From a virus, in the IMG/VR virus record IMGVR_UViG_3300031565_000304, positions 1 through 26,915 of that record: a stretch of DNA of 26,915 nucleotides. The stretch is one strand, 5' to 3'. Both the position numbers and the translations under genes were made by a program. Every line of letters begins with the position of its first letter. The first letter of the stretch is position 1. This document shows positions 1 to 10,582 of this stretch, piece after piece. The notes below the pieces were generated by a model. It worked only from the letters and a program-made list of their open reading frames with translations. It was not told where the DNA came from and searched no databases.

Positions 1-53
1 CAGTTTTATTACGTAATTATTCTGTCATTGAATATCATCTTCCGATGATAATG

Positions 54-135
54 TGAGGATGGTGGGACTCGAACCCACATGCCATTCGACACTGGTTTCT
101 TAGACCAGCCTGTAAACCAATTCCAGCACATCCCC
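54..135 (-). tRNA. tRNA-Leu (anticodon AAG)
   Basis: The minus strand folds as a class II tRNA. The acceptor GGGGATG pairs with CATCCTC with one G-T pair, the discriminator is A, and the anticodon stem CTGGT/ACCAG closes loop CTAAGAA, giving anticodon AAG. A 13-base variable region precedes T-arm GTGGG/CCCAC with loop TTCGAGT. Leu identity is supported by the Leu-like D region and A73. An AAG anticodon is rare in bacteria and would need A34-to-inosine editing to read widely. It is the last tRNA of operon 1 inside the window. Confidence 0.85.
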
Positions 136-140
136 ATAAA

Positions 141-203
141 TGAGACCACGTTCCGACCATAGCCAAGGATCGAACTTACGTATGCCTACTGCGTGGCTAC
201 TCA
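141..203 (-). other. structured spacer between tRNAs (tRNA remnant or small RNA element)
   Basis: The spacer between tRNA-Trp and tRNA-Leu is closed by an interrupted stem: TGAG at 141-144 pairs with CTCA at 200-203, and CCACG at 146-150 pairs with CGTGG at 192-196. On the tRNA strand it contains TAAGTTCGATCCTTGG, which resembles the 3' half of a tRNA with a T-loop, but there is no anticodon arm. It may be an eroded tRNA or a processing or structured element. Confidence 0.35.
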
Positions 204-208
204 TTTTG

Positions 209-295
209 CACGGGTAGGGGGATTCGAACCATAATGCATGCCTTACCATTTCTCCCCTTGGACGGAGAGTGTCTTACCAGTTAGACGATACCCGT
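209..295 (-). tRNA. tRNA-Trp-like (anticodon CCA), non-canonical loops
   Basis: Acceptor ACGGGTA pairs perfectly with TACCCGT. A1-T72 and discriminator G73 both fit bacterial tRNA-Trp. The D-arm GTCT/AGAC is intact. The anticodon region has T33 then CCA, but the perfect stem TCTCC/GGAGA leaves an 8-base loop (GTCCAAGG). An unusually long variable region contains AATG/CATT. The T-loop TTCGAAT is canonical, but only two of five T-stem pairs form. The operon leader peptide contains one Trp, which supports the Trp assignment. It may be functional with altered structure, or decaying. Confidence 0.6.
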
Positions 296-300
296 ATAAT

Positions 301-449
301 AAAGTAATTTGGACGAACCGTCCTTTTTGTACCGAGTCTGCTACTTAAATAGCATGCGCTGCATTGAAAGCGCACATCTAAAAAGTAAGCCTACGTGCCA
401 CGTTCGCACTTACGAGTTTCCATTACGAACCACGTTTCCAAATTACTTT
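301..449 (-). other. inverted-repeat-bounded structured spacer (element A)
   Basis: A perfect 13-bp inverted repeat (301-313 with 437-449) encloses a region that can form several hairpins on the tRNA strand: GGACG/CGTCC with a 3-base loop, TGCTA/TAGCA, TGCGCT/AGCGCA, and GTAAGTGC paired with GCAC plus TTAC. It fills the gap between tRNA-Ala and tRNA-Trp. No tRNA or plausible protein gene is visible. Strand is inferred from the flanking tRNAs. Confidence 0.5.
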
Positions 450-450
450 G

Positions 451-525
451 TGGAACAGGTGGGATTTGAACCCACGATCTTCTGCTTGCAAAACAGACGC
501 ATTAGCCAGACTATGCTACTGCCCC
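451..525 (-). tRNA. tRNA-Ala (anticodon TGC)
   Basis: Acceptor GGGGCAG/CTGTTCC (two G-T pairs), D-arm GCAT/ATGC, anticodon stem TCTGT/GCAGA with loop TTTGCAA giving TGC, T-stem GTGGG/CCCAC with loop TTCAAAT, discriminator A followed by CAA rather than CCA. It is a complete class I tRNA in operon 1. Confidence 0.93.
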
Positions 526-606
526 AAAATCCTCCCTGCTTTACCATGCGCTTTGTACTTCAGCACCAATTACTTGGCTAATGATTCGAACATTTCGCAG
601 GGGTTG

Positions 607-688
607 TCCTCTCGGAGAGACTCGAACTCTCACACCTCACGGCACTTGATCCTAAGTCAAGCGTGTCTACCAATTCCACCACGAGAGG
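607..688 (-). tRNA. tRNA-Leu (anticodon TAG)
   Basis: A class II tRNA. Acceptor CCTCTCG/CGAGAGG, D region TGGTGGAATTGGTAGACAC typical of Leu, anticodon stem CTTGA/TCAAG with loop CTTAGGA giving TAG, a long variable arm, and T-stem GAGAG/CTCTC with loop TTCGAGT. Discriminator A is followed by CAA. It reads CTN codons. Confidence 0.95.
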
Positions 689-693
689 GATTG

Positions 694-768
694 TGCTTCC
701 TGTAGGATTCGAACCTACGACTTCTTCCTTGTAAGGGAAGCACTCTGAACCAACTGAGTTAAGGAAGC
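694..768 (-). tRNA. tRNA-Val (anticodon TAC)
   Basis: Acceptor GCTTCCT/AGGAAGC, anticodon stem CTTCC/GGAAG with loop CTTACAA giving TAC, T-stem GTAGG/CCTAC with loop TTCGAAT, discriminator A followed by CAA. Its 5' end overlaps the last 10 bases, including the stop codon, of the upstream reductase gene, so tRNA maturation would cut into that message. Confidence 0.95.
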
Positions 769-1463
769 CTATTATTAAATTTAGATAAATCCATTTCGAT
801 TGTAGGAAGAACATCGTTGTACCAATCACCAATATCTGGTTTTGTTCTTTTTGCCAACTCAAAAACCGATTTGAATCGTGTGCCGATATTCCAAACACCA
901 GACCTATCTTCATTAATGAGTTCAATTATTTGACCAGCAATCACATCAACATAGTCAAAATTTCCCTTCACGTTCCCAAATGCTTTTTCATATGGAAATG
1001 GTGTTGGTTTAAATGAACATCTTACGAGCAAATAATCTTGAACTCTTAATTGGACGTGCGCATCTGAAAGTAATTTCGTATATGCATACCAAGTGTTTTG
1101 ATGAACAGGTACGTCTGTCTCTTTTTTTGCCGACCCCCCCTCGCTATTTGCGTAGATGTAATCCGTTGATATATGGACTAATTTGATGTATTCCGTGTCG
1201 CATATACTTGCAAGATTTGCGACAAATTCATAGTTTACATCCCAATGTTTTTGTCTTTCTTTATCGTAGGTGTTTGTATAACCAATACAGTTTACAACTA
1301 CGTCTGGATCGACATTCATTAATAAATCTGCAAAATCATCAAAGTTTTTAACCACATCAATTTCATCCTTTTCCATTGAGAGATATTCCCAACCCGTTTG
1401 CTTGATAATTTCCGACCCTAAAAGACCGTCACCTAATACTAATACTTTTGGATATTCATTCAT
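759..1463 (-). CDS. RmlD-like NAD(P)-dependent sugar reductase/epimerase (short form)
   Basis: A 234-residue extended short-chain dehydrogenase most like dTDP-4-dehydrorhamnose reductase (RmlD). The N-terminal Rossmann motif GDGLLGS (residues 11-17) binds the nucleotide. HISTDYIYA (98-106) holds the catalytic Ser/Thr region, and YAYTK (126-130) is the YxxxK catalytic pair. Family members usually run to about 280-300 residues, so the C-terminal substrate-binding part is shortened. In the host, RmlD makes dTDP-rhamnose for surface polysaccharides; a phage copy could act in nucleotide-sugar or surface modification, which is inference. The gene sits within tRNA operon 1, and its stop codon lies inside the tRNA-Val gene. 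Upstream are dyad symmetries and a possible TATATTTG box. The reductase fold is secure; the exact substrate is unknown. Confidence 0.8.
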   Translation of the reverse strand: MNEYPKVLVLGDGLLGSEIIKQTGWEYLSMEKDEIDVVKNFDDFADLLMNVDPDVVVNCIGYTNTYDKERQKHWDVNYEFVANLASICDTEYIKLVHISTDYIYANSEGGSAKKETDVPVHQNTWYAYTKLLSDAHVQLRVQDYLLVRCSFKPTPFPYEKAFGNVKGNFDYVDVIAGQIIELINEDRSGVWNIGTRFKSVFELAKRTKPDIGDWYNDVLPTIEMDLSKFNNRLP

Positions 1464-1478
1464 AATGCGTCATATTTT

Positions 1479-1501
1479 CCCCAAATATAATTATTTTGGG
1501 G
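1479..1501. promoter_or_regulatory. dyad upstream of the reductase gene containing a TATATTTG box
   Basis: Seven-base arms CCCCAAA/TTTGGGG flank an A/T centre about 16 bases before the reductase start. The minus strand of the dyad includes TATATTTG, matching the Bacteroidota -7 box TAnnTTTG; the nearest TTTG lies 23 bp upstream, longer than the usual 19-21. It could be a promoter-operator overlap. Confidence 0.35.
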
Positions 1502-1536
1502 ATAATATGCAACAAATCCCATAACGTTAAATACAT

Positions 1537-1573
1537 TTTACAAAATGGTGGGTTTTTGTAAATTATAATTTAC
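1537..1573. repeat. two overlapping palindromes in an intergenic gap
   Basis: TTTACAAAA (1537-1545) pairs with TTTTGTAAA (1554-1562), and a perfect 16-bp palindrome GTAAATTATAATTTAC lies at 1558-1573. Both lie between the small membrane protein gene and the reductase gene. They could be operator sites or a weak bidirectional hairpin. The A/T-rich composition makes chance possible. Confidence 0.35.
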
Positions 1574-1577
1574 ATTA

Positions 1578-1793
1578 TCATTTTCTTTTTAGAAATTTTA
1601 AAGGGTTTATCTTAGATAACACAAAATAAGATATAAAGAATAATACCGATGCAAGGTAAAAAACGGAAATTGAAATCCAGTAATTGCCTGTCATATCCAT
1701 TAACCATTTCAAAAGGGCATCGTAGCCTAATGGATTGAAAAATGTTCCAAGCATTAGGCAGAGGGTCGCTATTTTTTCTCTTGTTACCTTCAC
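1578..1793 (-). CDS. small two-helix membrane protein, function unknown
   Basis: A 71-residue protein with a weakly hydrophobic first segment (about residues 9-32) and a strong membrane helix (about residues 38-60), then a basic tail ending KFLKRK, suggesting a cytoplasmic C-terminus. The start is GTG at 1793, preceded by GGAAG three bases upstream; an ATG at 1803 in another frame gives a less protein-like product. It lies between tRNA-Glu and the reductase gene in operon 1, with a GTATTTAT element 39 bases upstream. No family recognised. Confidence 0.6.
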   Translation of the reverse strand: MKVTREKIATLCLMLGTFFNPLGYDALLKWLMDMTGNYWISISVFYLASVLFFISYFVLSKINPLKFLKRK

Positions 1794-1832
1794 TGTCTTC
1801 CATTTTTTTATGTTTTAATAAAATTATTTTAA

Positions 1833-1840
1833 ATAAATAC
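1833..1840 (-). promoter_or_regulatory. GTATTTAT element upstream of the small membrane protein gene
   Basis: An exact GTATTTAT in coding orientation, 39 bases before the GTG start at 1793 and just downstream of tRNA-Glu. It is a member of the repeated intergenic motif described in the findings. Confidence 0.45.
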
Positions 1841-1845
1841 TCTTG

Positions 1846-1917
1846 TACTCGGTAGGGGAATCGAATCCCTATTGCCGGGATGAAAACCCGAATTCCTAAC
1901 CGTTAGAAGAACCGAGC
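1846..1917 (-). tRNA. tRNA-Glu (anticodon TTC), copy 1
   Basis: Acceptor GCTCGGT/ACCGAGT with a G1-T72 wobble. Anticodon stem TCGGG/CCCGG with loop TTTTCAT gives TTC. T-arm AGGGA/CCCCT has an A53-C61 mismatch, with loop TTCGATT. Discriminator A is followed by CAA. Confidence 0.88.
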
Positions 1918-2036
1918 AAATTGAGCGGTGGAAAGGGAGTGTATGCCCTTATTACATGAGTCTCTATCGTGACTCAAAACCACAAAAACCGATGGACTTA
2001 ACCATTACTATCTTTCGACATTTCGATTTCGCTTTG
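1918..2036 (-). other. structured spacer between the two tRNA-Glu genes (element D)
   Basis: On the tRNA strand a three-hairpin fold is visible: ATGG/CCAT, then GTGG/CCAC enclosing GAGTC/GACTC and AAGGG/CCCTT. It superficially mimics a cloverleaf, but the loops lack tRNA consensus bases (no TTC T-loop, 8-base central loop). No protein gene is visible here. Confidence 0.4.
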
Positions 2037-2109
2037 TACTGCGTAGGGGGTTCGAACCCCTAATCTTCAGATTGAAGGTCTGACGGCTTACCAATTTGCC
2101 TAACGCAGC
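2037..2109 (-). tRNA. tRNA-Glu (anticodon TTC), copy 2 with C33
   Basis: Acceptor GCTGCGT/ACGCAGT with a G1-T72 wobble, a short D-stem GGC/GCC, anticodon stem TCAGA/TCTGA, and a perfect T-arm AGGGG/CCCCT with loop TTCGAAC. The anticodon loop is CCTTCAA, giving TTC with C at position 33 instead of the near-universal T. Discriminator A is followed by CAA. It duplicates copy 1 in isotype. Confidence 0.85.
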
Positions 2110-2278
2110 ATTTAATCGTCCGATAATCGTCTGGTTTATCCAGACAATCTTCCGATAATCGTCCGATTTTGTATCGTATATGACACTTTTTTACTGTTAT
2201 AGCGGTAATTTGTCTGGTTTCTCCAGACGAAAGTATTCTTTATGATACTTTTTACTGTTATAACGGTAAATTTTAAAG
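2110..2278. repeat. repeat-rich intergenic segment with hairpins and two 18-bp dyads
   Basis: The segment holds two GTCTGG/CCAGAC hairpins (2129-2145, 2212-2228), direct repeats of TCCGATAATCGTC (starts near 2119 and 2151), and two copies of an 18-bp imperfect palindrome: TTACTGTTATAGCGGTAA (2191-2208) and TTACTGTTATAACGGTAA (2252-2269). The paired dyads, each preceded by a T-rich ACTTTTT tract, look like operator sites or processing hairpins. No gene is visible. Confidence 0.5.
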
Positions 2279-2418
2279 AAATGCTTTGTCACTTGTTACG
2301 GATGATGGCTTTTTCATGCCACAGTCTCCTGCTTATTTAAGGCAGGTATGCTTATTACAACAACCCGTGTATCCTCATACCCCACACCCTCTCAATGTGG
2401 ACCGACAACAAAGCATTT
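2279..2418 (-). other. inverted-repeat-bounded structured spacer (element B)
   Basis: A perfect 10-bp closing stem, AAATGCTTTG (2279-2288) with CAAAGCATTT (2409-2418), encloses hairpins CCACA/TGTGG, GTAT/ATAC, CCTGC/GCAGG and TGGC/GCCA. The CCTGC hairpin and its AGTCT flank resemble part of element A. It abuts the 3' end of tRNA-Asp. Confidence 0.5.
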
Positions 2419-2419
2419 G

Positions 2420-2492
2420 CGGTACTGATGGGATTCGAACCCACGATCCCCTGCGTGACAGGCAGGTATCTTAACCACTGGACCACAGTACC
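2420..2492 (-). tRNA. tRNA-Asp (anticodon GTC), canonical copy
   Basis: Acceptor GGTACTG/CAGTACC, anticodon stem CCTGC/GCAGG with loop CTGTCAC giving GTC, T-loop TTCGAAT, discriminator G as expected for Asp, followed by CAA. Well formed. Confidence 0.95.
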
Positions 2493-2527
2493 AATTTATG
2501 GTCTCCGAAGAGACCTGATTTTAATAA

Positions 2528-2761
2528 TCAATTACTTCCAACTGGACCTTGAACGTGAACATGTCGCCTGTGTCCTTTTAGTTCTGCGCTCAGATTTAAA
2601 ACTTCTGCCACGTCATGAACACAATCCCTGAGAGGAACACCTTTTGTTCTTTTTTCACATTCACAGAGTCTTTCGAATTTCTTCACGTCATCCTCTGTCT
2701 TGACGTACTGCGTAAAATCGTATCCTAAATACGATACATACTTTTTCTGATCTTCAGTCAT
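2528..2761 (-). CDS. small protein of unknown function inside the tRNA operon
   Basis: A 77-residue soluble, charged protein with three Cys residues (two in CECE) and a His-rich tail (HRRHVHVQG). The start at 2761 is fixed by a strong Shine-Dalgarno AAGGAGGT four bases upstream; reading further upstream would run into tRNA-Asp. It lies between two tRNA-Asp genes. The strong ribosome site contrasts with other starts in the window, which lack one, and suggests high expression or different ancestry. No family recognised. Confidence 0.65.
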   Translation of the reverse strand: MTEDQKKYVSYLGYDFTQYVKTEDDVKKFERLCECEKRTKGVPLRDCVHDVAEVLNLSAELKGHRRHVHVQGPVGSN

Positions 2762-2765
2762 GATG

Positions 2766-2773
2766 ACCTCCTT
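2766..2773 (-). promoter_or_regulatory. strong Shine-Dalgarno site
   Basis: AAGGAGGT lies four bases before the ATG at 2761. It decides the start of the 77-residue protein and is an unusually perfect anti-16S match for this window. Confidence 0.75.
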
Positions 2774-2790
2774 TTTTAGATTAATAATTG

Positions 2791-2861
2791 CCGACCACGT
2801 GGGATTCGAACCCCTCCACCTCATAGACAGTGAGGCATACTACCATTATACTACGCAGTCG
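2791..2861 (-). tRNA. tRNA-Asp (anticodon GTC), aberrant T-stem
   Basis: Anticodon stem CCTCA/TGAGG with loop CTGTCTA gives GTC, and discriminator G73 fits Asp. Acceptor CGACTGC/GTGGTCG has two G-T pairs. The T-loop TTCGAAT is canonical, but only about three T-stem pairs form (AGGGG against CCCAC). It is the first tRNA after the promoter of operon 1. Either a functional variant or an eroding duplicate of the Asp gene at 2420. Confidence 0.75.
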
Positions 2862-2956: not shown

Positions 2957-2985
2957 AAAAAACCCGACTCTTGCGGGTCGGGTTT
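2957..2985 (-). terminator. intrinsic terminator/attenuator of tRNA operon 1
   Basis: A 9-bp stem (2960-2968 with 2977-2985, AAACCCGAC/GTCGGGTTT) is followed on the minus strand by TTTTTTGTTTT. It sits between the leader ORF and the tRNAs. GTCGGGT in the leader (3030-3036 as the minus strand) can pair over 7 bp with the 5' arm, which would prevent the terminator. Confidence 0.8.
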
Positions 2986-3006
2986 CGAATTTCTCTTTTG
3001 GTATTA

Positions 3007-3117
3007 TTATATACCAGTTTTCGATCTATACCCGACTGAACATATCTCTTCCGCATCATCCACCCATAATAGGGCAACGAGTACCAAGTTCATCAATATG
3101 TTCATCACGTTTTTCAT
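3007..3117 (-). CDS. leader peptide of tRNA operon 1 (attenuator ORF)
   Basis: A 36-residue ORF that starts MKNVMNI and contains the run LVLVALLWVDDAEE (codons TTG GTA CTC GTT GCC CTA TTA TGG GTG GAT GAT GCG GAA GAG). These six amino acids are the isotypes of the nine tRNAs downstream: Leu x2, Val, Ala, Trp, Asp x2, Glu x2. It lies between a Bacteroidota promoter and an intrinsic terminator. A segment shortly after the run, within TCA GTC GGG TAT, can pair with the terminator's 5' arm. The second tRNA operon has a homologous leader start (MKNLVNI). The inferred role is to sense charged tRNA by ribosome stalling rather than to make a functional protein. The N-terminal hydrophobicity follows from the Leu/Val run and need not mean membrane insertion. 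Confidence 0.7.
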   Translation of the reverse strand: MKNVMNILMNLVLVALLWVDDAEEICSVGYRSKTGI

Positions 3118-3140: not shown

Positions 3141-3171
3141 CAAAGGTAGCACCATTTTTCATAAATACAAA
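3141..3171 (-). promoter_or_regulatory. Bacteroidota-type promoter of tRNA operon 1
   Basis: On the minus strand TTTG (3168-3171), 19 bases and TACCTTTG (3141-3148) match the Bacteroidota primary-sigma consensus TTTG-N19-21-TAnnTTTG. The leader ORF starts 23 bases downstream of the -7 box. The same boxes and spacing occur at 8384-8414. Confidence 0.75.
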
Positions 3172-7470: not shown

Positions 7471-7501
7471 CAAAGATATTAAAATAAATGCAACCCGCAA
7501 G
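7471..7501 (-). promoter_or_regulatory. Bacteroidota-type promoter of the small-protein operon
   Basis: On the minus strand CTTG (7498-7501), 19 bases and TATCTTTG (7471-7478) match TTTG-N19-TAnnTTTG with one change. Its upstream half lies inside the terminator hairpin that ends tRNA operon 2. Confidence 0.65.
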
Positions 7502-7509
7502 AGTTGCAT
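7481..7509 (-). terminator. terminator at the end of tRNA operon 2
   Basis: A 7-bp stem ATGCAAC/GTTGCAT (7488-7494 with 7503-7509) with loop CCGCAAGA is followed on the minus strand by TTATTTT. It closes the tRNA transcript ten bases after the last tRNA-Gln and overlaps the next promoter. Confidence 0.65.
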
Positions 7510-7518
7510 TAAAAAAAG

Positions 7519-7591
7519 TTGTCCCCGCAAGGCTCGAACTTGCACTCGCCTGAACCAAAATCAGATGTGTTACCAATTACACCAGAGGACA
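7519..7591 (-). tRNA. tRNA-Gln (anticodon TTG), copy 1
   Basis: Acceptor TGTCCTC/GGGGACA with the weak T1-A72 pair typical of Gln, D-arm GTGT/ACAC, anticodon stem TCTGA/TCAGG with loop TTTTGGT giving TTG, T-stem GCAAG/CTTGC with loop TTCGAGC. Last tRNA of operon 2. Confidence 0.92.
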
Positions 7592-7596
7592 AAATG

Positions 7597-7668
7597 ACAA
7601 CCAGAGGGGACTCGAACCCCTGTAACCAGACCCACAATCTGGTGCTTTACCAGTTAAGCTACTGGAGG
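7597..7668 (-). tRNA. tRNA-His (anticodon GTG), acceptor-stem anomalies
   Basis: Anticodon stem CCAGA/TCTGG with loop TTGTGGG gives GTG, and the T-arm AGGGG/CCCCT with loop TTCGAGT is perfect. The acceptor CCTCCAG/CTGGTTG has two T-pyrimidine mismatches, and the apparent discriminator is T rather than the C expected for His. The 5' strand reads as CAAC and CCAG interrupted by TCCT, so an insertion may have broken it. The 5' end is uncertain by a few bases. Confidence 0.7.
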
Positions 7669-7670
7669 AG

Positions 7671-7743
7671 TTGACCCGGCAGGATTCGAACCTGCAATCT
7701 TCTGATTCAAAGTCAGACGTGTTAACCGTTACACTACGGGTCA
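7671..7743 (-). tRNA. tRNA-Gln (anticodon TTG), copy 2
   Basis: Acceptor TGACCCG/CGGGTCA with T1-A72, D-arm GTGT/ACAC, anticodon stem TCTGA/TCAGA with loop CTTTGAA giving TTG, T-stem GCAGG/CCTGC with loop TTCGAAT, discriminator A. Well formed. Confidence 0.93.
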
Positions 7744-7748
7744 ATATG

Positions 7749-7824
7749 GGGTGAAAGACGGGGTATGATCCCGCATGCTCCTGATTCACAGTCAGGTGAG
7801 TCTACCAATTCCTCTACAATCACC
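7749..7824 (-). tRNA. tRNA-His (anticodon GTG), aberrant T-loop
   Basis: Anticodon stem CCTGA/TCAGG with loop CTGTGAA gives GTG, and discriminator C73 is the His-specific base. The D-stem GAG/CTC is present. The T-stem GCGGG/CCCGT forms, but its loop is ATCATAC instead of TTCnAnT, and the inner two acceptor pairs are T-T. It complements the other His gene, which has a good T-arm but a poor acceptor. Confidence 0.72.
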
Positions 7825-7829
7825 ATGTT

Positions 7830-7969
7830 AAAACGGACAGGATTTTCACCTTGATCTATCCCCTCATATGGGGACCGTGTTGTTGCCGTACACCTTTCGT
7901 CAACCTTCATCGAGCGTTCCCTCTCGAATTCAGATGGTTACTTAATGCAAAGTATTACACCACCGTTTT
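7830..7969 (-). other. inverted-repeat-bounded structured spacer (element C)
   Basis: AAAACGG (7830-7836) pairs with CCGTTTT (7963-7969) and encloses hairpins TCCCC/GGGGA, CGAG/CTCG and GTTG/CAAC on the tRNA strand. It lies between the long-arm tRNA-Pro and tRNA-His. No gene is visible. It is similar in size and plan to elements A and B of operon 1. Confidence 0.45.
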
Positions 7970-7971
7970 TG

Positions 7972-8067
7972 TCGGGCATGTGAGATTCGAACTCACGGTC
8001 CACACTACCCTTGTGCAGACACTGGTTTCCAAGACCAGCAGCTTAAACCAAACTCGCTCAATACCCG
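7972..8067 (-). tRNA. tRNA with proline anticodon TGG and long variable arm
   Basis: Acceptor CGGGTAT/ATGCCCG with C1-G72 and A73 (bacterial Pro identity elements). Anticodon stem CTGGT/ACCAG with loop CTTGGAA gives TGG. T-arm GTGAG/CTCAC with loop TTCGAAT is canonical. Between the anticodon and T arms is a 25-base variable region forming an 8-bp stem GTCTGCAC/GTGTGGAC, a class II feature normally confined to Leu, Ser and Tyr. Prolylation is likely from its identity bases, but charging by SerRS or LeuRS cannot be excluded. Confidence 0.85.
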
Positions 8068-8074
8068 TTGTTGG

Positions 8075-8147
8075 TCGGGGTAGCCAGACTCGAACTGACG
8101 ACCTCGTGCTCCCAAAGCACGCATACTACCAACTGTACTATACCCCG
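8075..8147 (-). tRNA. tRNA-Pro (anticodon TGG), canonical
   Basis: Acceptor CGGGGTA/TACCCCG with C1-G72 and A73, anticodon stem CGTGC/GCACG with loop TTTGGGA giving TGG, T-stem GTCAG/CTGGC with loop TTCGAGT. It is the only tRNA here with a full CCA encoded after the discriminator. First tRNA after the operon 2 leader. Confidence 0.93.
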
Positions 8148-8161
8148 ATTATTTTCAAAAT

Positions 8162-8171
8162 GTAAAGAACA
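8162..8171 (-). promoter_or_regulatory. boxA-like antitermination element before tRNA operon 2
   Basis: The minus strand reads TGTTCTTTAC immediately after the leader terminator's T-run and 14 bases before tRNA-Pro. It matches the boxA core TGYTCTTTA. It occupies the equivalent position to the element at 2933-2942. Confidence 0.55.
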
Positions 8172-8172
8172 C

Positions 8173-8202
8173 AAAAAACCCCACTCATTTCTGAATGGGG
8201 TT
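8173..8202 (-). terminator. intrinsic terminator/attenuator of tRNA operon 2
   Basis: The stem AACCCCA/TGGGGTT (8177-8183 with 8196-8202) is extended inside by TCA/TGA and followed on the minus strand by TTTTTT. It sits between the leader ORF and the tRNAs. Its 5' arm, CCCCATTCAG on the minus strand, is perfectly complementary over 10 bases to the leader segment at 8244-8253. Confidence 0.85.
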
Positions 8203-8243
8203 CTTAATCACAAAATTCTACATGAAATTCGTTAACGTACCTT

Positions 8244-8253
8244 CCCCATTCAG
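8244..8253 (-). promoter_or_regulatory. antiterminator arm of the operon 2 attenuator
   Basis: On the minus strand CTGAATGGGG pairs over all 10 bases with the 5' arm of the terminator (CCCCATTCAG, 8191-8200 complement), so the two hairpins exclude each other. The arm overlaps the leader's TGA stop codon, so a ribosome finishing the leader would cover it and allow termination. Confidence 0.65.
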
Positions 8254-8306
8254 CATCCTTGTGGATGTTGTTGCGGTTGGGGTTGTATGTTAACTAAATT
8301 TTTCAT
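8250..8306 (-). CDS. leader peptide of tRNA operon 2 (attenuator ORF)
   Basis: An 18-residue ORF, MKNLVNIQPQPQQHPQGC. Nine consecutive codons specify only Gln, Pro and His (CAA CCC CAA CCG CAA CAA CAT CCA CAA), the three isotypes encoded by the six tRNAs downstream (Gln x2, Pro x2, His x2). It has a Bacteroidota promoter upstream and a terminator/antiterminator pair downstream, with its stop codon inside the antiterminator arm. A CCCCA in the Gln-Pro-Gln codons can also pair with TGGGG of that arm, giving a 1-2-3-4 arrangement like amino-acid operon attenuators. The first seven residues match leader 1 in pattern (MKN, V/L, x, NI). Too short to detect by coding statistics; the evidence is architecture and composition. 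Confidence 0.75.
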   Translation of the reverse strand: MKNLVNIQPQPQQHPQGC

Positions 8307-8383
8307 TTTTTCAGTCTTTTTACTCTTTCAATGTTTTGTCTTTTCAGTCTTTTATTATTACAGTCTTTCTTCTAAATACTCAG

Positions 8384-8414
8384 CAAAGGTAAAAAAAGAA
8401 ATTGATTCTGCAAA
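8384..8414 (-). promoter_or_regulatory. Bacteroidota-type promoter of tRNA operon 2
   Basis: On the minus strand TTTG (8411-8414), 19 bases and TACCTTTG (8384-8391) fit the consensus exactly and equal the operon 1 promoter in both boxes and spacing. The leader ATG lies 77 bases downstream, after several AAAGACTG-type repeats. Confidence 0.8.
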
Positions 8415-8433
8415 CTATTTCTAATATTTTTTA

Positions 8434-8473
8434 TAAAAAAACAATTGCACTCGGAAAAATGGAGTGCAATTGT
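8434..8473 (-). terminator. strong terminator upstream of tRNA operon 2
   Basis: A perfect 12-bp stem ACAATTGCACTC/GAGTGCAATTGT (8441-8452 with 8462-8473) is followed on the minus strand by seven T residues. It would end a minus-strand transcript starting near 8579 and insulate the tRNA promoter. Confidence 0.85.
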
Positions 8474-8575
8474 CGATTCTAAAAGTCTAATTTTCACATA
8501 ACCACTAACTGGCGCAGTAAAAAATCATTCCTGATTCATCAGACCTAACTTAATATTAATTAAGCAATGACTTTA
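8441..8575 (-). ncRNA. candidate small RNA
   Basis: Between a minus-strand GTATTTAT element (8579-8586) and the strong terminator is about 130 bases with no open frame longer than seven codons. It contains hairpins CTGAT/ATCAG and ACTG/CAGT. If the element initiates transcription, the product is a short untranslated RNA. Inferred from its boundaries only. Confidence 0.35.
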
Positions 8576-8578
8576 CAC

Positions 8579-8586
8579 ATAAATAC
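8579..8586 (-). promoter_or_regulatory. GTATTTAT element facing the candidate small RNA
   Basis: Exact GTATTTAT on the minus strand with no protein gene following. It is about 105 bases upstream of the terminator at 8441-8473. Confidence 0.4.
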
Positions 8587-8628
8587 TCGATGCTCGTAAA
8601 AATAATTTAAATTTATATAAATTTGTAA

Positions 8629-9802: not shown

Positions 9803-10582
9803 TTAAACTTTTCTTATATATTTATCAAATTTACCAAGCTGTTCTTTTGCAAGATTTGCACATACATAATCTTCACCAGCTTTAATTGCACCCATTACTC
9901 TATGATGCCCATCTCTTAATTGGAGTTTAAATACCCCGATATCACCCGTTTGATTACGAAATGCTTCTGCTAATTCAACCTCAAGACTAAGAAATTCTTC
10001 AAAGGCAGTAAAATCATCTTCATCTGGATTAAGTTCATTAAATTTTTGTGTTAAAGATTCCTCAGTTTCTTTTCCATTAACTAAATCATATTTGTGTTCG
10101 TCAAAAAATTTAAGAATGTTCGGGTCGGAAGTAATCATATATACGAACTCTTGATCCGACATATCCTCGGTCCCAATGTATTTATCCAATTCATTATCTC
10201 CCGTAGAATATGGTCTATCGTGCCCGTCTTGATCGATCATGAATCTATCTTGCACTTCTGCTTCTTGGTGTTCACGGATATCAATTAGGGTCACCACACT
10301 CCCAATTCCATATGAACATTCAAATTCAACAAGTTCTGGTGATTCAAGTATTAAATCCACCACAAATTGTAGTTTTTCATAATCGTAAATATTTCCACTC
10401 ATTCCATGTACGTCTTCGGCAGGAATAACAATCATTTGATCGGGATCACCATACCAAATCACATTTTTACCAACAAATTTTTTAGATAGTCTTTTAATAT
10501 CGTCTGGAAGAGTGGGATCGAAAAATTCCTCTTCCGTTACAAAGTTTCTGATTTCTTCGTTGATGATATTTTTCAATGTCAT
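9803..10582 (-). CDS. ParB/sulfiredoxin-fold-like protein
   Basis: A 259-residue protein. The N-terminus MTLKNIINEEIRNF resembles the (I)NE leader segments seen in neighbours. Near the C-terminus, FKLQLRDGHHRVMGAIKAGEDYV matches the ParB-like nuclease core (DGHHR then AxxAGxxxV) used by ParB, sulfiredoxin and several phage ATPase/nuclease proteins. The first two thirds are acidic and unrecognised. It begins two bases after the stop of the 706-residue virion-type gene and is probably in its operon. Fold assignment rests on one motif. Confidence 0.6.
   Translation of the reverse strand: MTLKNIINEEIRNFVTEEEFFDPTLPDDIKRLSKKFVGKNVIWYGDPDQMIVIPAEDVHGMSGNIYDYEKLQFVVDLILESPELVEFECSYGIGSVVTLIDIREHQEAEVQDRFMIDQDGHDRPYSTGDNELDKYIGTEDMSDQEFVYMITSDPNILKFFDEHKYDLVNGKETEESLTQKFNELNPDEDDFTAFEEFLSLEVELAEAFRNQTGDIGVFKLQLRDGHHRVMGAIKAGEDYVCANLAKEQLGKFDKYIRKV

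What the first reader, a model, noticed from the sequence alone, without database searches (positions are those of the whole stretch)
8173..8414. Complete attenuator in front of the Pro/His/Gln tRNA operon
The parts are in order: promoter (8384-8414), 18-codon leader, antiterminator arm CTGAATGGGG overlapping the leader stop, terminator (8177-8202) with T6, boxA-like site, tRNAs. The antiterminator arm pairs over 10 bp with the terminator's 5' arm. A CCCCA in the Gln-Pro-Gln codons pairs with TGGGG of that arm, giving segments 1-2-3-4. A ribosome completing the leader would sit on segment 2 and allow termination; one stalled at Gln, Pro or His codons leaves it free to block the terminator.
Basis: partly seen in the sequence, partly recalled or inferred. 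Interest (0 to 1): 0.93.

Follow-up and report, generated by a model that had tools for sequence, protein, structure and literature searches.

The report
Phage tRNA operons with leader-peptide attenuators
A family of large bacterial viruses places in front of each of its transfer-RNA gene clusters a tiny coding region rich in exactly the codons those transfer RNAs read, followed by a transcription stop signal, so that the virus probably makes more of a transfer RNA only when ribosomes run short of it.

Summary
The window is part of a T4-portal phage, probably of a Bacteroidota host. Before the Pro/His/Gln tRNA operon lie a TTTG...TACCTTTG promoter, the leader MKNLVNIQPQPQQHPQGC*, competing arms, a terminator and a boxA-like site. 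Relatives have four leader classes, Pro/His/Gln, Asp/Glu/Val/Leu/Ala/Trp(/Met), Tyr/Lys and Thr/Cys/Ile/Ser/Phe/Gly/Asn/Arg: all 20 amino acids. In a divergent relative with regrouped operons the leaders follow the grouping. Two distant huge phages show likely further cases. Of 39 attenuator-like elements in 1.17 Mb, 35 precede tRNAs. Best explanation: ribosome-mediated (trp/his-type) attenuation in which shortage of a charged tRNA stalls the leader ribosome, prevents termination and switches on the operon encoding that tRNA. No report of attenuated tRNA operons was found in the library searched. All evidence is computational; at full-length equilibrium the terminator wins in most states, as for E. 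coli thr, his and phe in the same calculation.

The parts
8384..8414 (-). Bacteroidota-type promoter TTTGCAG-N-TACCTTTG of the Pro/His/Gln operon
   Evidence: TTG-N19-22-TAnnTTTG lies within 200 nt upstream of 38 of 41 leaders, against 2.7% of random windows
8250..8306 (-). Leader ORF MKNLVNIQPQPQQHPQGC*; codons 8-16 all Gln/Pro/His
   Evidence: conserved in 14 contigs (A1)
8279..8294 (-). Segment 1 (GTTAACATACAACCCC), pairs with segment 2
   Evidence: CCCC:GGGG kept in most relatives, the GTTAAC stem only in part
8244..8253 (-). Segment 2, antiterminator arm CTGAATGGGG, overlaps the leader stop
   Evidence: 10 bp with segment 3; compensatory U-A to C-G in two relatives
8191..8200 (-). Segment 3 CCCCATTCAG (5' arm of the terminator)
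8173..8204 (-). Intrinsic terminator (segments 3:4) with T6 at 8178-8173
   Evidence: terminator stem covaries in A1
8162..8172 (-). boxA-like TGTTCTTTACA between terminator and first tRNA
   Evidence: G[TC]TCTTT within 35 nt after the terminator in 21 of 40 attenuators, against 0.9% background
7518..8147 (-). tRNA operon Pro, Pro, His, Gln, His, Gln
7487..7510 (-). Terminator-like hairpin at the end of the Pro/His/Gln operon
3141..3171 (-). Promoter TTTGTATTTATG..TACCTTTG of the second tRNA operon
3007..3117 (-). Second leader ORF MKNVMNILMNLVLVALLWVDDAEEICSVGYRSKTGI*
   Evidence: homologues in 12 or more contigs
3030..3036 (-). Antiterminator arm GTCGGGT inside the second leader ORF
   Evidence: 6 of 300 shuffles as good
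2957..2986 (-). Second terminator GAAACCCGACCCGCAAGAGTCGGGTTTTTT
53..2861 (-). Second tRNA operon: Asp, Asp, Glu, Glu, (small ORFs), Val, Leu, Ala, Leu-like, Leu

Best explanation
Each tRNA operon of these phages is controlled by ribosome-mediated transcription attenuation. RNA polymerase starts at a host-type promoter and makes a leader mRNA whose 18-42-codon ORF is rich in codons for the amino acids of the tRNAs encoded downstream. If those charged tRNAs are plentiful, the ribosome reaches the leader stop, which lies so that it covers arm 2; arms 3:4 then form the terminator and the tRNAs are not made. If any of those tRNAs is scarce, the ribosome stalls upstream of arm 2; arm 2 pairs with arm 3 before arm 4 is made, and polymerase reads through, past a boxA-like site in about half of the cases (probably NusB/S10 antitermination for the untranslated array), into the tRNA genes. 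The system thus makes tRNAs on demand, plausibly when host tRNAs are cleaved by defence nucleases, lost as host transcription stops, or outstripped by phage codon demand. Shown here: anatomy, conservation, matching of leader to operon, mutually exclusive pairing. Inferred: stalling, readthrough, the boxA function and the biological trigger.
For: (a) Leader residues match operon content in every class. The correct leader-operon assignment is the best of 24 permutations in each of five genomes. (b) In divergent relative G003 the operons are grouped differently and the leaders follow, down to codons: Arg AGA before tRNA-Arg(UCU), Arg CGT (two of three) before tRNA-Arg(ACG). (c) Specificity: 35 of 39 terminator + competing arm + leader elements in 1.17 Mb precede tRNA genes, and a further one is a Tyr/Lys leader near the end of the fetched stretch. 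(d) 16 of 17 Tyr/Lys leaders found by a scan of IMG/VR have Tyr/Lys tRNAs downstream. (e) The 2:3 arms beat nearly all shuffles in most elements and show compensatory changes. (f) The folding signature equals that of E. coli thrL, hisL and pheL. (g) A promoter precedes 38 of 41 leaders, and the terminator-tRNA gap is often 15-30 nt. (h) Likely further cases in two huge phages, LR756508.1 and LR756511.1.
Against: No expression data. At full-length equilibrium the terminator wins in nearly all states, so the switch must be kinetic. In the window element, RNA without a ribosome and before arm 4 is made already prefers 2:3 (0.83), so an untranslated leader might read through. Arm 2 is weak in some elements (G003 Ser/Arg/Cys, G003 Pro/Asp/Tyr/Gly/Met, G010 Asp/Glu, G015 Asp/Glu). 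Covariation inside one class rests on one pair with two double changes. Synonymous codons are not spread more widely than expected overall.
Confidence: 0.9

Rival explanations
1. The leader is a conserved arrest peptide: the nascent QPQPQQHP chain (proline-rich) stalls ribosomes regardless of tRNA supply, and regulation answers to another signal such as EF-P or a drug.
For: The Pro/His/Gln peptide is conserved at amino-acid level and proline-rich.
Against: Other leader classes have quite different peptides, each matching its own tRNAs; leaders follow regrouped operons in G003.
Confidence: 0.05
2. The terminator ends an upstream unit, the short ORF is a real small protein or chance, and the tRNAs have their own promoter.
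For: Terminator-like hairpins are common; a weak sigma-70-like match spans 8166-8137.
Against: That match runs into the tRNA itself; the terminator-tRNA gap is often 15-30 nt; a promoter lies just upstream of 38 of 41 leaders; leader content follows operon content.
Confidence: 0.03
3. The element is a T-box or a protein-bound attenuator (TRAP or PyrR type) that senses tRNA or a ligand directly.
For: Both give terminator/antiterminator switches.
Against: No Rfam T-box hit; PyrR scores 24 bits against a cut-off of 54; a translated ORF with cognate codon runs is not needed in those systems.
Confidence: 0.02

Closest known systems
Ribosome-mediated attenuators of enteric amino-acid operons (thrL, hisL, pheL, trpL)
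   Same: Leader peptide with cognate codon runs, 1-2-3-4 arms, intrinsic terminator; same folding signature in the same calculation for thrL, hisL and pheL
   Different: The regulated genes are tRNAs, not biosynthetic enzymes; one leader covers 2-8 amino acids; several attenuators in one phage genome together cover all 20
Leader-peptide attenuation in Bacteroidota hosts (Flavobacterium psychrophilum, PMC9723704)
   Same: Same phylum as the probable host, same TAnnTTTG promoter type
   Different: There it was reported upstream of amino-acid biosynthesis operons, not tRNA genes or phages
T-box riboswitches
   Same: Answer to tRNA charging by antitermination
   Different: Bind uncharged tRNA directly and need no leader peptide; no Rfam hit here
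Phage tRNAs as replacements for cleaved host tRNAs (PMC10264068; Yang et al. 2021, cited in PMC11025619)
   Same: Purpose proposed for phage tRNAs
   Different: No regulatory mechanism was found in the papers read; here is a candidate sensor

Membership tests
Ribosome-mediated (leader-peptide) transcription attenuation | Short translated leader with runs of codons cognate to the regulated function | tested here: met
   (translation itself is inferred)
Ribosome-mediated (leader-peptide) transcription attenuation | Intrinsic terminator between leader and regulated genes | tested here: met
Ribosome-mediated (leader-peptide) transcription attenuation | Mutually exclusive antiterminator (arm 2 pairs with arm 3) | tested here: met
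   weak in about 4 of 41 elements
Ribosome-mediated (leader-peptide) transcription attenuation | A ribosome at the leader stop covers arm 2 | tested here: met
   arm 2 overlaps the stop or lies just upstream of it in most elements; farther upstream in a few (three of the G003 leaders, window second leader), where a ribosome translating the end of the leader would cover it
Ribosome-mediated (leader-peptide) transcription attenuation | Protector 1:2 pairing | tested here: inconclusive
   CCCC:GGGG mostly kept, extended stem not conserved; other classes not examined pair by pair
Ribosome-mediated (leader-peptide) transcription attenuation | Readthrough rises when the cognate charged tRNA falls | not testable with these tools
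   Needs a reporter or infection experiment
Classical amino-acid-operon attenuators (trp, his, thr, phe) | Targets are amino-acid biosynthesis, transport or synthetase genes | tested here: not met
   Targets are tRNA genes; a feature of the known examples, not of the mechanism
T-box riboswitch | T-box sequence, specifier loop, Rfam T-box match | tested here: not met
   No T-box hit
PyrR-type attenuator | PyrR binding RNA motif | tested here: not met
   24.1 bits against gathering score 54

The most novel reading that the evidence does not exclude
A genome-wide tRNA supply sensor: four leader-peptide attenuators in one phage together monitor the charged tRNAs of all 20 amino acids and switch on only the operon that replaces the missing tRNA, serving as an inducible answer to loss of host tRNAs (for example by host anticodon nucleases), and used also by distant huge phages.
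Probability: 0.55. Interest if true: 0.93.

Novelty: new variant of a known kind. Interest (0 to 1): 0.9.

Why it matters
Why phages carry tRNA genes has been open for decades (PMC10264068). A regulatory circuit that turns each tRNA operon on when its own tRNAs run short would say that the tRNAs are wanted when the pool is depleted, and makes that directly testable. It would also extend leader-peptide attenuation to tRNA genes and to phages, with one leader sensing many amino acids.

Tried and rejected
Equilibrium folding as a test of the switch: it favours the terminator in most states, but also for E. coli thr, his and phe, so it does not discriminate; the trpL run did not locate the known arm and says nothing. 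Spread of synonymous codons in leaders as a sign of isoacceptor sensing: no overall excess (two of 16 leaders below 0.01). The same leader in bacterial genomes: pattern matches in GTDB contigs were P/Q-rich coding or unrelated frames without tRNAs. Controls T4 and crAss001, with tRNA arrays, gave no attenuator; the KVP40 stretch fetched held no tRNAs and says little. Flavobacterium phage immuto, among the nearest isolates by portal, has three tRNAs and no such element in the stretch read. A separate leader for the distal Leu/Leu/Met tRNAs was sought and not found; they probably belong to the Asp/Glu/Val/Leu operon. A candidate in LR756511.1 at L369 was judged too weak. Literature searches found no report; most subscription journals and preprints are not in that library.

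Full report
What the window is. The record is a 26,915-base virus contig with a T4-type terminase and portal. The portal of the nearest named phages is only 39% identical, among them Flavobacterium phage immuto and Microcystis phage Mel-JY01. The promoters in front of the tRNA operons have the TAnnTTTG -7 box of Bacteroidota sigma-A (PMC9723704), so the host is probably a member of that phylum (inference). ARAGORN finds 15 tRNA genes, all on the minus strand, in two arrays.

The observation. Promoter 8414-8384; leader 8306-8250 (MKNLVNIQPQPQQHPQGC*); arm 2 CTGAATGGGG 8253-8244, overlapping the stop; arm 3 8200-8191; terminator 8204-8173; boxA-like site; then Pro, Pro, His, Gln, His, Gln tRNAs. 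Codons 8 to 16 are nine Gln, Pro or His codons in a row, the three amino acids of the operon. The 2:3 pairing of -18.9 kcal/mol was not reached by any of 300 dinucleotide shuffles.

A second attenuator in the same window. In front of the other array (Asp, Asp, Glu, Glu, Val, Leu, Ala, Leu-like, Leu) lies the same arrangement: promoter 3171-3141, leader 3117-3007 MKNVMNILMNLVLVALLWVDDAEEICSVGYRSKTGI, arm GTCGGGT 3036-3030, terminator 2986-2957. Its core LVLVALLWVDDAEE consists of Leu, Val, Ala, Asp and Glu, the amino acids of that operon, plus one Trp; relatives carry tRNA-Trp in this operon.

Relatives. Loci were found through the portal (80 loci) and gene 9803-10582, and stretches around their tRNAs were read. 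tRNAs are grouped in the same way across the clade. A scan for terminator, upstream competing arm and short ORF, with two leaders read by eye, gave four leader classes: Pro/His/Gln (..NIQPQPQQHPQ..); Asp/Glu/Val/Leu/Ala/Trp, with Met (MKTLLDILLVSLMAVALLWDDDAEEV..); Tyr/Lys (MRTFGTYYYGKKSYKK..); and Thr/Cys/Ile/Ser/Phe/Gly/Asn/Arg (MKAQVSNINISSTINSRNGNGIFCSSFTGRN..). Together these are all 20 amino acids. A pattern scan of IMG/VR for the Tyr/Lys core returned 18 stretches; of the 17 read as leaders, 16 have Tyr and/or Lys tRNAs close downstream, and in the remaining one (L136) the fetched stretch ends just after the leader.

Does the leader follow the operon? In four genomes with all four leaders the correct leader-operon assignment is the best of 24 permutations; these genomes are related, so this is not four independent tests. 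The stronger test is G003, a divergent 195-kb relative whose tRNAs are grouped differently. Before Ser/Cys/Arg: MKTVITNRWSRWSSSSNRATERTLVCQNVM. Before Pro/Asp/Tyr/Gly/Met: MEKVYTYNENTSINPMGYMGAPAADD... Before Asn/Thr/Lys/Ile/Met/Cys: MYSLNIHTTINNTICNKKQNG... Before Phe/Val/Leu/Arg/Gln: MKNINNILRQLSLQFLQLLFVFSRQKF... Again the correct assignment is best of 24. Even codons fit: the Arg codons are AGA where the operon has tRNA-Arg(UCU), and CGT (two of three) where it has tRNA-Arg(ACG).

Specificity and controls. In 1.17 Mb searched on both strands there are 263 terminator-like hairpins, 39 with competing arm and leader ORF, of which 35 lie within 1.5 kb upstream of tRNA genes; of the other four, one is a Tyr/Lys leader (L103 19.6 kb) near the end of its stretch. 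These stretches were chosen because they hold tRNAs, but the scan did not use the tRNAs. The tRNA arrays of T4 and crAss001 show no such element. No bacterial genome among the GTDB contigs scanned gave a Pro/His/Gln leader before tRNAs. A promoter TTG-N19-22-TAnnTTTG lies within 200 nt of 38 of 41 leaders, against 2.7% of random windows. The boxA-like G[TC]TCTTT, often extended to GTTCTTTGACATGTTGGAAA, follows the terminator within 35 nt in 21 of 40, against 0.9%.

RNA structure. Arm 2 is either at the leader stop (window and L099: TGAATGGGG or TGAACGGGG) or read through as GAATGGGG = Glu-Trp-Gly with the stop a few codons later; in both layouts a ribosome at the stop would cover arm 2. In the Pro/His/Gln alignment the 2:3 helix is 95.5% paired, against 14-61% when slid, with one pair changed on both sides in two sequences (L099, L103) in step with the terminator stem. 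This covariation is modest because the element is so conserved. Across all elements, 20 of 41 reach P of about 0.01 or less against shuffles (median P 0.013); the G003 Ser/Arg/Cys and Pro/Asp/Tyr/Gly/Met elements and the G010 and G015 Asp/Glu elements do not stand out.

Folding by ribosome state. With a ribosome stalled at a cognate codon and arm 4 not yet made, 2:3 forms with probability 0.75-0.9 in most elements; with a ribosome at the stop, the terminator forms; for full-length RNA the terminator wins in most states. E. coli thrL, hisL and pheL give the same pattern in the same calculation. The switch must therefore be kinetic, as in the classical systems. One caveat: in the window element RNA without any ribosome also favours 2:3 before arm 4 is made (0.83). 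The second window element is less clear (2:3 at 0.4 in the stalled state).

Wider occurrence. The huge phage LR756508.1 has MSRFHTLPLINILNANLALANNNPISLSGSSALDA with a -25.6 kcal/mol competing arm, 671 nt upstream of Leu and Asn tRNAs. LR756511.1 has a GTG-started leader VHTFSASLRLSSYSLSSLLYSNVRRGT, after a TTGACA..TAAAGT promoter, before four Ser, five Leu and two Tyr tRNAs. Both look like further cases in distant phages; they come from scans with few hits, and the arm of the second is weaker (-13.5).

Mechanism and purpose. Shown: the parts, their conservation, the match of leaders to operons and the exclusive pairings. Inferred: translation of the leader, stalling, readthrough, the boxA function, and the trigger. 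Because the regulated product is the tRNA itself, the circuit is a direct feedback on tRNA supply. Loss of host tRNAs to defence nucleases (PMC10264068) or to the shutdown of host transcription, or heavy codon demand of the phage, are candidate triggers; amino-acid starvation would also trigger it, although more tRNA would not help then.

Novelty. The mechanism is a known kind (leader-peptide attenuation). The target (tRNA operons), the carrier (phages), the many amino acids per leader and the coverage of all 20 amino acids by four leaders were not found in the papers searched. That library lacks most subscription journals and preprints.

Noticed in passing
window 8430-8600 (-); also L099, L112, L114, L123: A conserved stretch of about 110 nt with hairpins and a terminator lies upstream of the Pro/His/Gln promoter in at least five contigs (AAGTCATTGCTTAATT..TTAAGTTAGGTCTGA..CAGGAATGATTTTT..GCCAGTTAGTGGTTATGTAAA); no Rfam family. 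Possibly a small phage RNA.
   Followed up: partly
window 208-295 (-); also unnamed tRNAs in L104, L108, L110: tRNA-like genes with an 8-nt anticodon loop (four-base anticodon, e.g. ccaa, tgaa, aaga) within the arrays; could be frameshift-suppressor tRNAs or degenerate copies.
   Followed up: no
window 7971-8067 (-): A 97-nt tRNA-Pro (TGG) with a long variable arm, unusual for Pro and resembling a type II (Ser/Leu-like) body.
   Followed up: no
L105 about 7.9-8.5 kb; L117 about 2.7-3.1 kb; L118 about 3.4-4.1 kb: HNH-type homing endonuclease-like genes (judged by eye) sit between the attenuator terminator and the first tRNA, so the attenuator would also control them.
   Followed up: no
window 1578-1793 (-); L120 about 2.6-2.9 kb: A small membrane-protein-like ORF (..GTFFNPLGYDALFKWLMDMTGNYWISISVFYLASVLFFI..) lies inside the tRNA array and recurs inside a tRNA array of another phage.
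   Followed up: no
downstream of leader promoters, e.g. window about 8383-8370; L099, L113, L123: A GTATTTA motif recurs about 5-12 nt after the TAnnTTTG box of many leader promoters.
   Followed up: no
G003 loci L087, L088, L089 just after the terminators: A recurring segment with GAAACGT and TCGAAAG-like words lies between terminator and first tRNA in place of the boxA-like site.
   Followed up: no
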